Below, piece by piece: positions 5,022-52,878 of a stretch of DNA of 64,000 bases. The notes below the pieces were generated by a model. The model ran no database searches and was not told where the DNA came from. It was given only the letters and a program-made list of their open reading frames with translations. The DNA comes from an uncultured Pseudomonadota bacterium (lineage in GTDB: Bacteria > Myxococcota_A > UBA796 > SXON01). The stretch lies in the NCBI GenBank assembly GCA_903844155.1, contig CAIMSU010000103.1:1-64000 (forward strand), read 5' to 3'. The position numbers and the translations under genes are program-made. Numbering within the stretch: the stretch's first letter is position 1; each line of letters starts with the position of its first letter.

Positions 5022-6476
<1,455 letters not shown>

Positions 6477-46513: not shown

Positions 46514-46616
46514 CGGCGAGGGGTTTGAGCGGCGTCCCACAGCGGGTCGTGGATCGGCGCGGGGCCAGGCGAGCCGCCCCAAGGCGCCCGAAGCCCCCGC
46601 GCCCGGCGTGAACGGG

Positions 46617-46645
46617 TTGCCACCGGCCGCGAACCCGCGTACCCT
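46617..46645 (+). promoter_or_regulatory. candidate promoter TTGCCA-N17-TACCCT
   Basis: exact 17-nt spacing, 25 bp before the ATG at 46671. Confidence 0.4.
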
Positions 46646-46670
46646 GCAGCCAACCGAAGCAGGTGCCACG

Positions 46671-48575
46671 ATGATCGCTCTCTTCCTCGCCGCCGTCCAA
46701 CTGGCCCGCGCGGGCGCTGCGGCCGATTTCCTGCCCGGTGTCGAGGGGCAGACCGGCTTCGGGCCCCCGGTCGTGGACGCCAGCGGCACGGAGGTCGCGT
46801 TGACGCGCTGGGACCGCGCGGGATTGTGGGCCTGGGACCAGAATGGGGCGCCAGCGCCCGTCAGCCTCTCGCGCGGGGCGGGCTTCCACCCGGTCTTTTC
46901 GGGGACTGATCTGCTTTACAAGGCCGTGACCAGCGGTGTCCAGCAGGCCCTGCTCTCGCGACGTGACGGCGGGCGCTGGGTGAATTCCTTGCTCGACGAA
47001 GGCCCCCACGTCGGCCAGCCCGCGATCCTCGCGGGCCGGATCGCCTGGCCCGGGCCAGACGCGCTTGGCGTCCGGTCCCCCGCCTCCCGCCGCGCCTACG
47101 CAGACCTCGATGGCATCGACATCATCGCCCCGGACGCCGGCGGGGAGCGGCTTGCCTGGGATGACGACGCCGGGCTGCTTCACGTTCGCGACGTGGCTAC
47201 GGGCCTGACCCGGACATTCCCCGACGCCGGGGCGGGGGCCTACCCTGCCTGGAGCAGCGATGGCGCGCTCGTGCTCCACCACGACGGCGACACCGTCACC
47301 ATCGTGAGCCCGGCCGACGGCAGGTTCGTCACGGTTGATGGCCGGGATCCGGCCTGGGTGCCCGGGACACACCAGATCGTCTACGCCGCGCTGGTGACCG
47401 GGAACGAGGTCGGCGACGAAAACACCGCCGGCATCGGCCCCTACGAGGTGGAGTCGTCCACGCTCTGGTCGTACGACGTCGCTACCGGCACCTCCACCGT
47501 GCTGCTCGACGACGCCGCCGTCCACGCTCGCTTCCCAGCGCCGATCGGCCGGTCGGGCGCGCTGCTGTTCGTCGACAGCCGCTCCGGCGATCTCTACCGG
47601 CTCGATCACGCCGTCGCGACGCGGGTTCTTCCCTCGTCCGCCCTCGACTTCGCGCGGGACGCCCCACCGCCCCCGCCCTCGGACGCGCGCGTTGAAGTCT
47701 CCGTCCCCTACATGCACCAGCTCTGGGACACCCCCGACGACTTCAACGGCAACTGGTCGTGCGGGCCGACGTCCTGCCTGCAAACGCTTGCGGCGTTTTC
47801 CACGCTTCCAAACTCGGACATCACCTGCTCCTGGCCCAGCTCGCACACGAGCCACTGGGGATGGTATGTCCCGAACGTCTACTCGTTTGGGGGCTACACG
47901 TACGACACGTGGGGGCTCGCTGCCGGCGGCCAGTGCCAGGGCGCCCACGGGTTCATCTGCGAGCAGTACGGTGGCGCGGTGTGGTCGCAGATGACGGCCT
48001 TCATGCAACAACACGGCGTTGACTCGCAGGAAGTGGGGACGGACTACAACAGCGTGGTCTCCGAGACGAACGCGGGGTATCCGATGTACGCATCGGTCTA
48101 CGTCCTTGGCTACGGGCATATTTTCGTGATTCGCGGCTATATTTCGCAGGACGGCAGCCCGATCCACACCGTGGTGGTGAACGACCCCTACGGCAACGCA
48201 GGGACCGGGAGCTGGGGCAACGACGACGGCGAAGACATCGTGTACGACTGGCCCGGGTACAACAACGGGAATCTGGCGTTTGACCTCTCCGAATTGTTCA
48301 CGGCGCACGGCGTGTACCCCTCCAGCGGCGGCGGAGACACCGGCACGCCGCCCGCGGACACGGGCACCCCGCCCGTCGACACCGCGCCGGCCTCGGACAC
48401 CGCGCCGGTCACAGACAGCGACACCGCCGGGACCGCGGACTCCGGCGGCATTTCGCGGCCCGGGACCGAGACGAAGGTCGACGGGATCGGCTGCCAGACG
48501 GCACCTTCGTTCCTCGACGGCTCCGTCGGCACGCTGCTTCTCGCCCTGGGCCTGGTCCGACGGCGGCAGCGCTGA
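46671..48575 (+). CDS. secreted C39-like cysteine peptidase with N-terminal beta-propeller-like repeats and MYXO-CTERM-like tail
   Basis: VPYMHQLWDTPDDFNGNWSCGPTSCLQTLAAF; GHIFVIRGY; VVVNDPYG; C-terminus GCQTAPSFLDGSVGTLLLALGLVRRRQR. Confidence 0.8.
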   Translation: MIALFLAAVQLARAGAAADFLPGVEGQTGFGPPVVDASGTEVALTRWDRAGLWAWDQNGAPAPVSLSRGAGFHPVFSGTDLLYKAVTSGVQQALLSRRDGGRWVNSLLDEGPHVGQPAILAGRIAWPGPDALGVRSPASRRAYADLDGIDIIAPDAGGERLAWDDDAGLLHVRDVATGLTRTFPDAGAGAYPAWSSDGALVLHHDGDTVTIVSPADGRFVTVDGRDPAWVPGTHQIVYAALVTGNEVGDENTAGIGPYEVESSTLWSYDVATGTSTVLLDDAAVHARFPAPIGRSGALLFVDSRSGDLYRLDHAVATRVLPSSALDFARDAPPPPPSDARVEVSVPYMHQLWDTPDDFNGNWSCGPTSCLQTLAAFSTLPNSDITCSWPSSHTSHWGWYVPNVYSFGGYTYDTWGLAAGGQCQGAHGFICEQYGGAVWSQMTAFMQQHGVDSQEVGTDYNSVVSETNAGYPMYASVYVLGYGHIFVIRGYISQDGSPIHTVVVNDPYGNAGTGSWGNDDGEDIVYDWPGYNNGNLAFDLSELFTAHGVYPSSGGGDTGTPPADTGTPPVDTAPASDTAPVTDSDTAGTADSGGISRPGTETKVDGIGCQTAPSFLDGSVGTLLLALGLVRRRQR

Positions 48576-48667: not shown

Positions 48668-49324
48668 ATGTCATTGCGATCTTCACTCTCTCGCCTCCTG
48701 CGCGTTGTCGCCCTTCCGCTCGCCGTGTCGGCCTGCGCCGCGACGCCTGGCCCAGGCGAAGGTGCCGCGGTGAAGCCCGACGCGGCGGACCCGCTCGCAG
48801 GGCCGCAGGCCGCGGTGCTCACGTCCCACGACGGCGCCGCGACCGTTCGGTCGACGATGCCGTCCGTTCCCCAATCGGGGCAGCCAGCTCCGGCGCTGCA
48901 CCTCAAGAACGTGGAGGGCGGTGACTTTTCGCTCAGCGCGCTCGCGGACCCGACGGGCGAGTCCTCCCCGAAAGGGGTGCTCGTGGCGTTCATGGCGTCG
49001 TGGTGCCAGTACTGCTCCAACAGCCTGCCGACGCTCGTGGCGATCGAAAAGGCAAACCCGGATCTGGAGGTCGTGGCGGTGACCGTCGACGACCGTCCGG
49101 ACATGCAGACGGCCGAGCTTGCGAAGGTGCGGAAAGCCGGGCTGACGGGCCCGGTGCTCGTGGCGGACCAGGACGCGATCAGGGACTGGGTTGGCGGCGG
49201 AAAGTCGGTTCCAAAGTACTTCTTCGTCAACCACAACGGGCTGATCGTGGCGCACGACGATGGGTTTGGCGGCAAGGTCGAGCCGCTGATGCCGAAGCAG
49301 GCCGCGCGCGCGCTCGAGGACTGA
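48668..49324 (+). CDS. TlpA-like thioredoxin-fold lipoprotein
   Basis: LAVSACAATPG lipobox; VLVAFMASWCQYCSNSLPTLVAIEK. Confidence 0.88.
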   Translation: MSLRSSLSRLLRVVALPLAVSACAATPGPGEGAAVKPDAADPLAGPQAAVLTSHDGAATVRSTMPSVPQSGQPAPALHLKNVEGGDFSLSALADPTGESSPKGVLVAFMASWCQYCSNSLPTLVAIEKANPDLEVVAVTVDDRPDMQTAELAKVRKAGLTGPVLVADQDAIRDWVGGGKSVPKYFFVNHNGLIVAHDDGFGGKVEPLMPKQAARALED

Positions 49325-51646
49325 GTGGAAGGCGAGGCGCGCCCGGGATGGGGCATCGGGGTCGCGGCGGTGTCCGCGGTCGGCCTTGGGGTGGCGGTCT
49401 ACCTCACGCATCTGCACATCGAACTCTTCTACGGAAAGGGCGTTGGCGACTCGCTTTGCGACCTGTCCGCAGGATTCAACTGCTCCGCAGTGAATGGATC
49501 GCCAGAGTCGGAGATCCATGGCGTGCCGCAGTCGATCGCGGCGATCCCGATGTTCGTGGTCACCGCGCTGCTCGGGCTCTACGGGCTTCGGGGCGCCGAC
49601 GCGCAGCGGCGGGTCGCACCGGTGCTCGCCGGCGTCGGCCTCCTCGCGGTGCTCTACAGCGCCCATCTCGCCTGGATCAGCGCCACGGTGATCGGCGCGT
49701 GGTGCTTGTTCTGCATGGTGCTGTACGGCGTGAATGTCGGGCTGCTCGGGCTCGGCCTCGCGCGCTCCGGCCCCCTCTCGCGCGCGCCCATCACGCTCGC
49801 GCTGTCGTTTGTGCGCACGCCGCTGGTCGTCGGCGGGACCACGGCGGCGTTCGCGCTCTCGTTCGCGGGGACCTGGCTGGGGTACACCCACGTCCGGGAC
49901 AGCGTCGTCGCCGAGTCGGCGAAGGCGGCTGTTGCGGCGGTCGCGGCGAGCCCAAAGCCGGCGCTGGGGAAGCCCGAGGCCGATCCGGGAAAACGAAAGA
50001 TCAAGCTCGGGGTGGCGAAGGACCTCCCGGTCCCCGCGGGCGCACCTACTCGCGGACCCGCGAGCGCGAAGGTCACCATCGTCGAGTTCAGCGACTTTCA
50101 GTGCCCCTTTTGCAAGCGCCTGGCCACCACGCTGCATCAAGTGCAGGGCGAGTACCCAGACGACGTGCGGCTCGTCTACCTGCAGTTCCCGATGAACACC
50201 GACTGCTCCAAAGCGCCGCTCAAGAAGTCCCTCCATCCCAACGCCTGCCACGCGGCGGCCACCGCCGTGTGCGCGGGTCGCCAGGGGAAGTTCTGGGAGA
50301 TGCACGACGCCCTTTTTGACGCCCAGGCGGACTTTGGCGACAAGGAATGGGCGGTGCTCGCGGGCGCCGTCGGCCTCGATCCCACTGCGTTCAACGCCTG
50401 TTTCGCCTCCGACGACACGCAGGCGGCCATCCTCGCGGACACCCAGGTCGGCGCCGACCTTGGGGCCAGCGGGACCCCGACCTTCTTCGTGAATGGCCGG
50501 CAGTTGACCGGCGCCCAGCCGATCGAGGTCATCCGCGCGGTCATCGACGCAGAGCTCGCCGGGAACAAAGCGGCGCTGGATCTCGATGTCGCGATCGGCA
50601 CCGAGACGACCGGGCCCGTGACCGTCGGCACCGACCCCGTCGCCGTCCCCGGCACAAGCGCCACGATCGATGCCCTTGAGGCCTCGCTCGATGGCAACCG
50701 CGCCGTGAGCAAGGCAGGGGCGGTGCCCGCTCGGAGCGTCTCCTGGTACGACGCTGACACGGCCTGCAAGGCGGCTGGAAAGCGCCTCTGCACCGAGAAG
50801 GAGTGGTTGTCGGCATGCACCGGCGCCACCCCGATCGACAGCGACCGCAACGGCGTGTTTTCCGACGACGATCAGGGCGGCAGGGCCTACGGCTACGTTG
50901 GTGACCGGCTCTCCGGGGCCTGCGCCGACTCCCGGAACCCGGACGCCGTCGGGGAGCTGGTGACGGGAAACCACCCGAAGTGCGGTACGCCCGAGGGCGT
51001 CTACGACCTTGTTGGCGGTGTCAAGGAGTGGGTGGGGCTGACACCGGGAACCGCAGCCACCAAGGGCGGCTCGTATTCGTCCGGCGATTCCGCGCGATGT
51101 GGCTACTACCGCGACGACATCGCGCCGGAGACGAAGGACCCTGCCACCGGCTTTCGCTGCTGCAGCGGCCCCGCGGACCCACCACCGACCGAAGCGCGCC
51201 CCGGTCGGGATGTCGGCGAAAAGATCGATGCGCTCTCGCTCCCGCTCGTCGGTGGCGGCAAGGTCACCACCCGATCCCTCGGCGGCCACCCAGCGATCGT
51301 CACGTTCTGGGCAACCTGGTGCGCTCCCTGCCAGAAGGAGATGCCGGCCCTCGCCGCGCTCTACACCGCCCACAAGGCCGATGGCCTGCAGATCCTCGCC
51401 GTCTCCGTCGACAAGGACGAGGCCAAACTCACGGCATGGCTGTCGGCTCATCCGATGCCCTTCCCGATCGCACGCGACCCCGATGGCGCGATCCTCAACA
51501 CGTTCTCGAATCGCGGGCTGCCGACGACCCTGTGGGTCAAACGTGACGGGACAATTCGGCTTCGCACCACCGGGATTCCACCGGGTGCGGAGAAGCGGCT
51601 GGGCGAGCTGGTCGATGAACTGCTCGCCAGCGGCACTGCGGGGTGA
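49325..51646 (+). CDS. four-domain fusion: VKOR - DsbA/thioredoxin - FGE/SUMF1-like - TlpA thioredoxin
   Basis: CDLSAGFNCSAV...VIGAWCLFCMVLYG (VKOR); FSDFQCPFCKRLA (DsbA-like); SWYDADTACKAAGKRLCTEKEWLSAC...GVYDLVGGVKEWV...GGSY (FGE-like); FWATWCAPCQKEMPAL (TlpA). Confidence 0.88.
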   Translation: MEGEARPGWGIGVAAVSAVGLGVAVYLTHLHIELFYGKGVGDSLCDLSAGFNCSAVNGSPESEIHGVPQSIAAIPMFVVTALLGLYGLRGADAQRRVAPVLAGVGLLAVLYSAHLAWISATVIGAWCLFCMVLYGVNVGLLGLGLARSGPLSRAPITLALSFVRTPLVVGGTTAAFALSFAGTWLGYTHVRDSVVAESAKAAVAAVAASPKPALGKPEADPGKRKIKLGVAKDLPVPAGAPTRGPASAKVTIVEFSDFQCPFCKRLATTLHQVQGEYPDDVRLVYLQFPMNTDCSKAPLKKSLHPNACHAAATAVCAGRQGKFWEMHDALFDAQADFGDKEWAVLAGAVGLDPTAFNACFASDDTQAAILADTQVGADLGASGTPTFFVNGRQLTGAQPIEVIRAVIDAELAGNKAALDLDVAIGTETTGPVTVGTDPVAVPGTSATIDALEASLDGNRAVSKAGAVPARSVSWYDADTACKAAGKRLCTEKEWLSACTGATPIDSDRNGVFSDDDQGGRAYGYVGDRLSGACADSRNPDAVGELVTGNHPKCGTPEGVYDLVGGVKEWVGLTPGTAATKGGSYSSGDSARCGYYRDDIAPETKDPATGFRCCSGPADPPPTEARPGRDVGEKIDALSLPLVGGGKVTTRSLGGHPAIVTFWATWCAPCQKEMPALAALYTAHKADGLQILAVSVDKDEAKLTAWLSAHPMPFPIARDPDGAILNTFSNRGLPTTLWVKRDGTIRLRTTGIPPGAEKRLGELVDELLASGTAG

Positions 51647-52878
51647 CCTCCCGCCCCGTCCCGGTCGCGGTTCTCGGCACGGTCCTGGTCACCGTACCGC
51701 TCACCGCGCTGGCCACGCTCTGGTGGACGGCTCGGCCACGTCCCACCGACGCGCCCATCGTTGCCTCGAGCGTGCCGCCGACGGCTTCCCGCTCGGACCC
51801 TGCCCGCACCGATCCCCCGAAGCCGGCCGCAGCCGACCCGCCGGCTCTCGCACAGGCGGTCGACCCACCCCGGCTTGTGCGTACTGACATCGCCGCCTGG
51901 GCCGCCGGCGCCCGTCGCGTCGCCGCGACCGACCTCGATGGGGACGGCGACTCGGAGATCGCGCTCGTCGGCGCCGACGTCACGGTGGTGACCAGCACAG
52001 GTCAGGCCCTCGCCACGACGCCCGCGGCCGGCGGCATCAACGTACTCGAGGGCTTCGGGGGCGCGTTCTACGCGGGGTGGGGCCGCGACAAGGACGCGCC
52101 GAACGCGAGCGCCAGCATCGTCCGATACACCCTCCGCCAACGTGCCCTGAGCGCCGAGACGGTCGTCGCCCCGACGACGACACGGCCCCAGATCGTCGCC
52201 ATCTCCCCAGCCAAGCCCGCCGGACTCCTGTTGGCGTGGTTCAGCGACAAGTACGGCGTGACGGCAGTCCGAGGTTCGCAAAGCGCGAAGCGCGCGCCCT
52301 GGACGCTGACCTCCGCCGCCGCCACGAGGACCGCCCCCGTATGGCTCTCGACCGACCTCGACGGCGACGGTGTCGACGACCTCGTCTACGGCAGGACCTA
52401 CGGGGACGCGGTCGGGTCCAGCGGCGACGCCTGGGTCGTGCGTAGCGCTGGCGGCGACAAGGTCGCAATTCCGACGACCGGCGGGGTGCGGGCCGGCTGC
52501 CTGGCCGACACCGACGGCGACGGCAGGCCCGAGGTCGTCCTCGCCGACGGCTGGGACAAGGACTACGGGCACCTTGCGAAGGCCGAGATCCGGCTCGTGA
52601 CCTGGGTAAACGGCGCGGTGCAGAGCGTCGTTCTCGACCGCAGCCCCGGCGACTACGACGTGACCCGCCTGCTCGCAGCCGACCTCGACGGGGATGGGAA
52701 ACAGGAGATCCTCGCCGTGACCAACACGAAGCTCAGGGTGATCAGCCGCCGAGGGAGCGGCTGGGTGGCGTGGGACGCGGCGTCGGGTACGGTCGACGCC
52801 GCCGTCGCCCTCGGACGGGGCGGGCCGACGGTCGTCGCAATCGGTCCGAAGCCGGAGGCGCTTGTGATCGGCAGGTGA
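51643..52878 (+). CDS. FG-GAP/VCBS-repeat protein
   Basis: DLDGDGDSEIALVGADV, DLDGDGVDDLVYGRT, DTDGDGRPEVVLADGW, DLDGDGKQEILAVTN; GTGA overlap with upstream gene. Confidence 0.85.
   Translation: MTSRPVPVAVLGTVLVTVPLTALATLWWTARPRPTDAPIVASSVPPTASRSDPARTDPPKPAAADPPALAQAVDPPRLVRTDIAAWAAGARRVAATDLDGDGDSEIALVGADVTVVTSTGQALATTPAAGGINVLEGFGGAFYAGWGRDKDAPNASASIVRYTLRQRALSAETVVAPTTTRPQIVAISPAKPAGLLLAWFSDKYGVTAVRGSQSAKRAPWTLTSAAATRTAPVWLSTDLDGDGVDDLVYGRTYGDAVGSSGDAWVVRSAGGDKVAIPTTGGVRAGCLADTDGDGRPEVVLADGWDKDYGHLAKAEIRLVTWVNGAVQSVVLDRSPGDYDVTRLLAADLDGDGKQEILAVTNTKLRVISRRGSGWVAWDAASGTVDAAVALGRGGPTVVAIGPKPEALVIGR

What the first reader, a model, noticed from the sequence alone, without database searches (positions are those of the whole stretch)
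49325..51646. Single-chain VKOR-DsbA-FGE-TlpA protein
Seen: VKOR module with WCLFC and paired loop cysteines, DsbA-like CPFC, an FGE/SUMF1-like domain (RLCTEKEWLSAC...GVYDLVGGVKEWV), and TlpA CAPC, all in 773 aa, after a stand-alone TlpA-like lipoprotein (WCQYC) ending 1 nt upstream. Known: VKOR-Trx fusions are common. The FGE-like domain plus a second Trx of reductive type in one chain is not something I recognise. Inference: coupled oxidation and reduction/isomerisation, with the FGE-like fold binding Cys-containing substrates.
Basis: partly seen in the sequence, partly recalled or inferred. Interest (0 to 1): 0.72.

Follow-up and report, generated by a model that had tools for sequence, protein, structure and literature searches.

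The report
Four-module disulfide enzyme of Myxococcota
One bacterial protein joins the machinery that makes disulfide bonds, a second thiol-exchange unit and a catalytically empty relative of the sulfatase-activating enzyme; it is a conserved, apparently undescribed family across the Myxococcota, and its empty enzyme domain is the best conserved part.

Summary
Window 49325-51646 (+) encodes one 773-aa chain with VKOR (13-142), DsbA (251-406), FGE-sulfatase (462-612) and TlpA/AhpC-TSA (630-745) domains, all above Pfam cut-offs. It abuts a TlpA lipoprotein gene and overlaps an FG-GAP gene by 4 nt. It is no one-off. About 47 of 281 Myxococcota genomes carry full or three-domain relatives, against 0 of 297 Acidobacteriota at the same threshold. 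The central domain has the FGE fold (model pLDDT 92.6; Z 15-18 to FGE, CalU17, pFGE, TvpA), but the copper-binding Cys pair is missing in all 61 homologues, so it should not make formylglycine. It is nevertheless the most conserved module: eight invariant Cys, kept even in paralogues whose VKOR and DsbA active sites are lost. In a sister clade the TlpA domain is a separate gene next to the VKOR-DsbA-FGE gene. Another clade sits opposite a ccm operon. Best reading: a periplasmic thiol-disulfide hub in which VKOR recycles DsbA to oxidise clients, TlpA does a second (probably reductive) exchange, and the dead FGE fold binds clients or partners. Architecture and conservation are shown; mechanism is inferred. 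New variant of a known kind (VKOR-DsbA fusion).

The parts
48668..49324 (+). TlpA-like lipoprotein (218 aa, WCQYC), conserved partner gene
   Evidence: AhpC-TSA 3.5e-10; orthologues next to family members in G049, G013, G153, G060, G169 and G260, one clade at 99 SH-aLRT
49325..51646 (+). VKOR-DsbA-FGE-TlpA protein, 773 aa
   Evidence: full-length homologues
49361..49750 (+). VKOR domain (aa 13-142), predicted transmembrane helices; C45/C53 and C127/C130
   Evidence: Pfam PF07884 2.3e-23; helices in model; Cys kept in 57 of 61 or more
50045..50560 (+). DsbA domain (aa 241-412), CPFC 260-263, cis-Pro GTP 383-385, four extra invariant Cys 294/308/316/359
   Evidence: structure matches Z about 20-21 to DsbA/ScsC/BdbD
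50660..51166 (+). FGE-like domain (aa 446-614), eight invariant Cys, no FGE catalytic Cys pair
   Evidence: PF03781 2.3e-12; model pLDDT 92.6; fold matches Z 15-18
50837..50872 (+). acidic loop DSDRNGVFSDDD (aa 505-516), candidate metal-binding loop
   Evidence: D505 61/61, D/N507 60/61, N/D/S/T509 61/61, D515 58/61; metal binding not tested
51206..51634 (+). TlpA/ResA-like thioredoxin domain (aa 628-770), CAPC 666-669
   Evidence: PF00578 1.4e-23; Z 22.7 to 3gl3 and about 20 to ResA
51643..52878 (+). FG-GAP repeat protein, overlaps the main gene by 4 nt; probable operon member
   Evidence: FG-GAP 3.2e-12, FG-GAP_3 1.3e-13; not among the conserved neighbours

Best explanation
It is a membrane-anchored, periplasm-facing thiol-disulfide hub. 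The VKOR bundle makes disulfides at the expense of quinone and passes them through its loop Cys to the fused DsbA (CPFC), which oxidises exported proteins. The C-terminal TlpA (CAPC) is a second exchange arm acting on the same clients, most likely to reduce or reshuffle particular Cys pairs such as apocytochrome or metal-centre thiols, with electrons from the genome's DsbD. The FGE-like module between them is a non-catalytic, disulfide-braced scaffold that recognises clients or partners and sets the geometry of the two arms. Shown here: architecture, intact motifs, fold, loss of the FGE active site, conservation, TlpA association as a gene or as a domain, no DsbB hit in the genome. Inferred: periplasmic topology, electron direction in TlpA, client identity, recognition role of the FGE module.
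For: All motifs intact; Pfam for every module. VKOR-DsbA fusions are known oxidases: a Clostridium VKOR-DsbA complements E. coli dsbA dsbB double mutants (PMC12453122). No DsbB, four VKOR, one DsbD and CcmE in the own genome. All 12 three-domain genes examined have a separate tlpA directly upstream, mostly overlapping, and these TlpAs group with the fused TlpA domains (92) apart from CcmG: the same partner, once separate, once fused. A VKOR-DsbA / tlpA cluster without FGE also exists on contig C295. Four members lie opposite a ccm operon. FGE is the best conserved module (0.62 against 0.56, 0.55 and 0.47) and stays closest in redox-dead paralogues (45-55% identity against 19-32% for TlpA and VKOR), so it has a role of its own. 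The catalytic Cys pair is absent.
Against: No biochemical data. TlpA-like proteins can also be oxidants (own knowledge: M. tuberculosis DsbE/DsbF), and a reductase fused to an oxidase risks futile cycling. The ccm linkage is seen in one clade only, and that operon has its own CcmG. Inter-domain geometry is weakly determined (pTM 0.59).
Confidence: 0.5

Rival explanations
1. Double oxidase: VKOR recycles both the DsbA and the TlpA domain, giving one chain with two oxidising arms of different client choice; no reduction is involved.
For: VKOR and both Trx modules are in one chain; the genome has no DsbB hit. Own knowledge: some actinobacterial TlpA/DsbE-like proteins oxidise.
Against: Best sequence and fold matches of the TlpA domain are ResA and DsbE/CcmG-like proteins, known mostly as reductases; a DsbD is present; stand-alone tlpA partners are common in the family.
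Confidence: 0.25
2. The FGE-like domain is mainly an internal structural spacer or dimerisation element without ligand, conserved because its four likely disulfides must fold.
For: The FGE active site is absent; Cys and core Gly/Trp residues dominate the invariant positions.
Against: It is the most conserved module, includes an invariant acidic loop, and stays most similar even when VKOR and DsbA active sites are lost.
Confidence: 0.15
3. An active formylglycine-generating or related oxygenase domain served by the redox modules.
For: FGE-sulfatase Pfam match and FGE fold; a sulfatase-superfamily gene directly follows the closest homologue in G007.
Against: Human FGE C336/C341 positions fall in a gap in the profile alignment; no homologue of 61 has Cys at the first position; the N-terminal third of the profile is not matched.
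Confidence: 0.03

Closest known systems
VKOR-DsbA/Trx fusion proteins (Synechococcus type; Clostridium sp. CsVKOR-DsbA, PMC12453122)
   Same: N-terminal VKOR with loop Cys pair and CXXC followed by a periplasmic DsbA-like domain
   Different: Here an FGE-like domain and a second, TlpA-type Trx follow in the same chain
Formylglycine-generating enzyme (SUMF1, Sc-FGE)
   Same: Same fold; positions of the two structural disulfides of human FGE (C218-C365, C235-C346; PMC4505483) appear kept as C481-C612 and C498-C592
   Different: Catalytic Cys336/Cys341 pair missing; four extra invariant Cys; shorter N-terminal part; fused between two Trx domains
Non-catalytic FGE-fold proteins (pFGE/SUMF2, PorK, DGR variable proteins TvpA and TaqVP)
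   Same: FGE/C-type-lectin-like fold used without formylglycine chemistry (own knowledge); structural matches Z 14-17
   Different: None is known to me joined to a disulfide-forming module
TlpA/ResA/CcmG thiol-disulfide oxidoreductases
   Same: C-terminal domain and upstream lipoprotein, WCxxC, ResA-like fold
   Different: Fused behind an FGE-like domain; forms its own group with stand-alone partners, apart from CcmG

Membership tests
VKOR family (PF07884) | Pfam match above cut-off, loop Cys pair, active-site CXXC | tested here: met
   83.2 bits against cut-off 27.5; C45/C53 and C127/C130 in nearly all 61 homologues
VKOR family (PF07884) | quinone reduction coupled to disulfide formation | not testable with these tools
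   needs assay
DsbA family | thioredoxin fold with helical insert, CXXC, cis-Pro | tested here: met
   PF01323 88.8 bits; Z 20-21 to BdbD, ScsC and alpha-DsbA2; CPFC and GTP-cisPro
TlpA/ResA/CcmG | AhpC-TSA/Redoxin fold with WCxxC | tested here: met
   PF00578 83.6 bits; Z about 20 to ResA
TlpA/ResA/CcmG | reductase function, electrons from CcdA/DsbD | not testable with these tools
   one DsbD in genome; interaction unknown
FGE-sulfatase superfamily (fold) | Pfam match and FGE fold | tested here: met
   47.5 bits against 23.3; 61 of 61 homologues; Z 15.3-15.9 over 158-163 residues to FGEs
Formylglycine-generating enzyme (catalytic) | copper-binding Cys pair C336/C341 (human) | tested here: not met
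   both fall in a gap in the profile alignment; first position never Cys in 61 homologues. A single-sequence alignment puts C592 at C341, which would still leave one Cys missing
EgtB/SenA sulfoxide synthases | DinB-like N-terminal iron-binding domain fused to FGE fold | tested here: not met
   only VKOR, DsbA/Trx, FGE and AhpC-type domains found; SenA/EgtB NCBIfam scores 28.9/19.7 bits, far below cut-offs 420/360

The most novel reading that the evidence does not exclude
The dead FGE fold has become the client-recognition centre of a self-contained oxidise-and-repair disulfide machine, reusing the old substrate-Cys groove to present Cys-containing clients in turn to an oxidising (DsbA) and a reducing (TlpA) arm of the same chain. 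In redox-dead paralogues it survives as a receptor without the oxidase.
Probability: 0.2. Interest if true: 0.8.

Novelty: new variant of a known kind. Interest (0 to 1): 0.55.

Why it matters
Oxidation and reduction/isomerisation of periplasmic disulfides are kept apart in E. coli by separate proteins. A conserved family that places a VKOR-driven oxidase and a TlpA-type thiol exchanger on one chain, around a catalytically empty but strongly conserved FGE fold, makes it testable how both can work together without futile cycling. It also suggests a new, non-catalytic use of the FGE fold in protein folding or cytochrome maturation in Myxococcota. The full pathway is on one gene and could be tested by complementing E. 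coli dsb mutants.

Tried and rejected
Active FGE: rejected on the missing Cys pair. Mis-assembly or a fused frame: rejected by many full-length homologues. A window-only oddity: rejected by the phylum survey. The fold search with the whole model listed only DsbA and TlpA matches, so the FGE domain was folded alone. Literature: searches for VKOR with FGE, SUMF1 or myxobacterial terms gave no description of this architecture; subscription papers and preprints were not searchable. Disulfide pairs could not be measured because model coordinates are not exposed. Sulfatase linkage was considered because of G007 and weakly G036 neighbours and not pursued: two cases, and the FGE site is dead.

Full report
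Observation. The window has one uninterrupted frame at 49325-51646 (+), 773 aa, GTG start directly after the TGA of a TlpA-like lipoprotein gene (48668-49324) and overlapping by 4 nt an FG-GAP protein gene (51643-52878). Pfam places VKOR at 13-142, DSBA at 251-406, FGE-sulfatase at 462-612 and AhpC-TSA at 630-745, each above its curated cut-off. All 20 Cys of the chain lie in known pairs or in the FGE and DsbA modules.

How common. The own genome holds a second gene, VKOR-DsbA-FGE without TlpA (contig C147). In relatives the four-domain chain occurs in G007 (57% identity), G036, G038, G049 (two), G031, G032, G043 and G051, and three-domain versions in at least ten genomes. In a draw from the phylum it extends to many further families. 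Centring the draw on a Polyangium sp. genome recovers the same genomes (for example the UBA6601 and DTSAM18 genomes and the G007 place), so the phylum is Myxococcota in GTDB's sense. There 48 of 281 genomes match at E 1e-60, one of them (G564) by VKOR-DsbA alone. Within the class it is 25 of 71. Well-known myxobacteria that were checked (Sorangium, Minicystis, Polyangium) show only DsbA-like matches at E 1e-20. None of 297 Acidobacteriota matched at E 1e-60.

Family anatomy. An alignment of 61 homologues: Pfam finds FGE-sulfatase and Thioredoxin_4 in 61, DSBA in 59, VKOR in 57 and AhpC-TSA in 47; most members without AhpC-TSA are the three-domain clade. On a tree of the DsbA-FGE part the three-domain genes form one group (96), apart from G288, whose frame is cut by a contig end. 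In all 12 three-domain genes examined a separate tlpA lies directly upstream, usually overlapping. The fused TlpA domains form one group (89), and together with these separate TlpAs they stand apart (92) from CcmG and from the lipoprotein TlpA clade that holds the window's upstream gene. So the same TlpA is either a neighbour or a domain. That lipoprotein clade (99) accompanies the family in the window, G049, G013 and four class-mates.

The FGE module. Folded alone with 33 relatives the domain gives pLDDT 92.6 and matches CalU17 (Z 18.0), TvpA (16.9), Sc-FGE (15.9), pFGE (15.4) and human FGE (15.3) over about 160 residues (Foldseek). Human FGE has an active-site pair C336/C341 and structural disulfides C346-C235 and C365-C218 (PMC4505483). 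In the profile alignment our C481, C498, C592 and C612 fall on C218, C235, C346 and C365, and the active-site pair falls in a gap. In no homologue is there a Cys at the first active-site position. A single-sequence alignment would instead put C592 on C341; even then the pair is incomplete. Four further Cys (489, 533, 553, 613) are invariant in 61 of 61, as is an acidic loop beginning at D505. By mean column conservation FGE (0.62) exceeds DsbA (0.56), TlpA (0.55) and VKOR (0.47). In paralogues of G028 and G047, which lack both Cys of the DsbA CXXC and at least part of the VKOR motif, FGE is 45-55% identical to related intact proteins, while TlpA is 19-30% and VKOR 24-32%. The inference is that the FGE module has a function of its own that outlives the oxidase.

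Context. The own genome shows no DsbB (the search rings in six control genomes), four VKOR genes, one DsbD and CcmE. Another VKOR-DsbA gene on C295 is followed by an OmpA-like gene and a TlpA lipoprotein. In G153, G060, G169 and G260 the family gene is followed by the lipoprotein TlpA and transcribed away from a cytochrome c maturation operon; CcmB, CcmC, CcmE, CcmF and CcmH were confirmed by Pfam in one or more of the four. This linkage is one clade's and does not prove the client.

Mechanism. VKOR-DsbA fusions are established oxidases; a clostridial one complements E. coli dsbA dsbB (PMC12453122). I therefore take oxidation of exported proteins by the first two modules as likely. TlpA most resembles ResA and DsbE/CcmG-like proteins, so a reductive or isomerising role with DsbD is my first choice and a second oxidising arm the main rival. 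The FGE module is read as a recognition or docking scaffold. Domain order, motifs, fold, conservation and gene association are shown; topology, electron direction and clients are inferred.

Novelty. VKOR-Trx fusions, FGE-fold non-enzymes and TlpA proteins are all known. Their combination was not found in the searched open-access literature. I file it as a new variant of a known kind.

Noticed in passing
L053:7542-9794, L054:8499-10850, L029 (G028, G047, G040): Paralogues, in G028 and G047 near prs/rplY/pth genes, in which the DsbA CXXC is lost and the VKOR motif is degraded, while FGE (and in two of them a TlpA CxxC) is kept; related intact genes sit at a similar place in G049 and G043.
   Followed up: partly
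window 46551-48575 (+): Protein with a Peptidase_C39_2 domain and a short Cys-containing C-terminal tail ending in a hydrophobic stretch and RRRQR, resembling a sorting tail; not tested.
   Followed up: no
L035:6883-8229 (G007): A sulfatase-superfamily gene overlaps the end of the closest homologue by 4 nt although that homologue's FGE domain lacks the catalytic Cys.
   Followed up: partly
L191:3161-5675 (own contig C295): VKOR-DsbA gene without FGE followed by an OmpA-like gene and a TlpA lipoprotein gene: a third VKOR-DsbA/TlpA association in this genome.
   Followed up: partly
own genome: 33 FGE-sulfatase matches in one genome; a few, including the two disulfide proteins, match only the C-terminal two thirds of the profile.
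   Followed up: partly
L047 (G013) 5777-6202 (-): A lone TlpA piece 61% identical to the window protein's TlpA domain, with its linker, near a three-domain gene: possibly a remnant of a four-domain gene.
   Followed up: no
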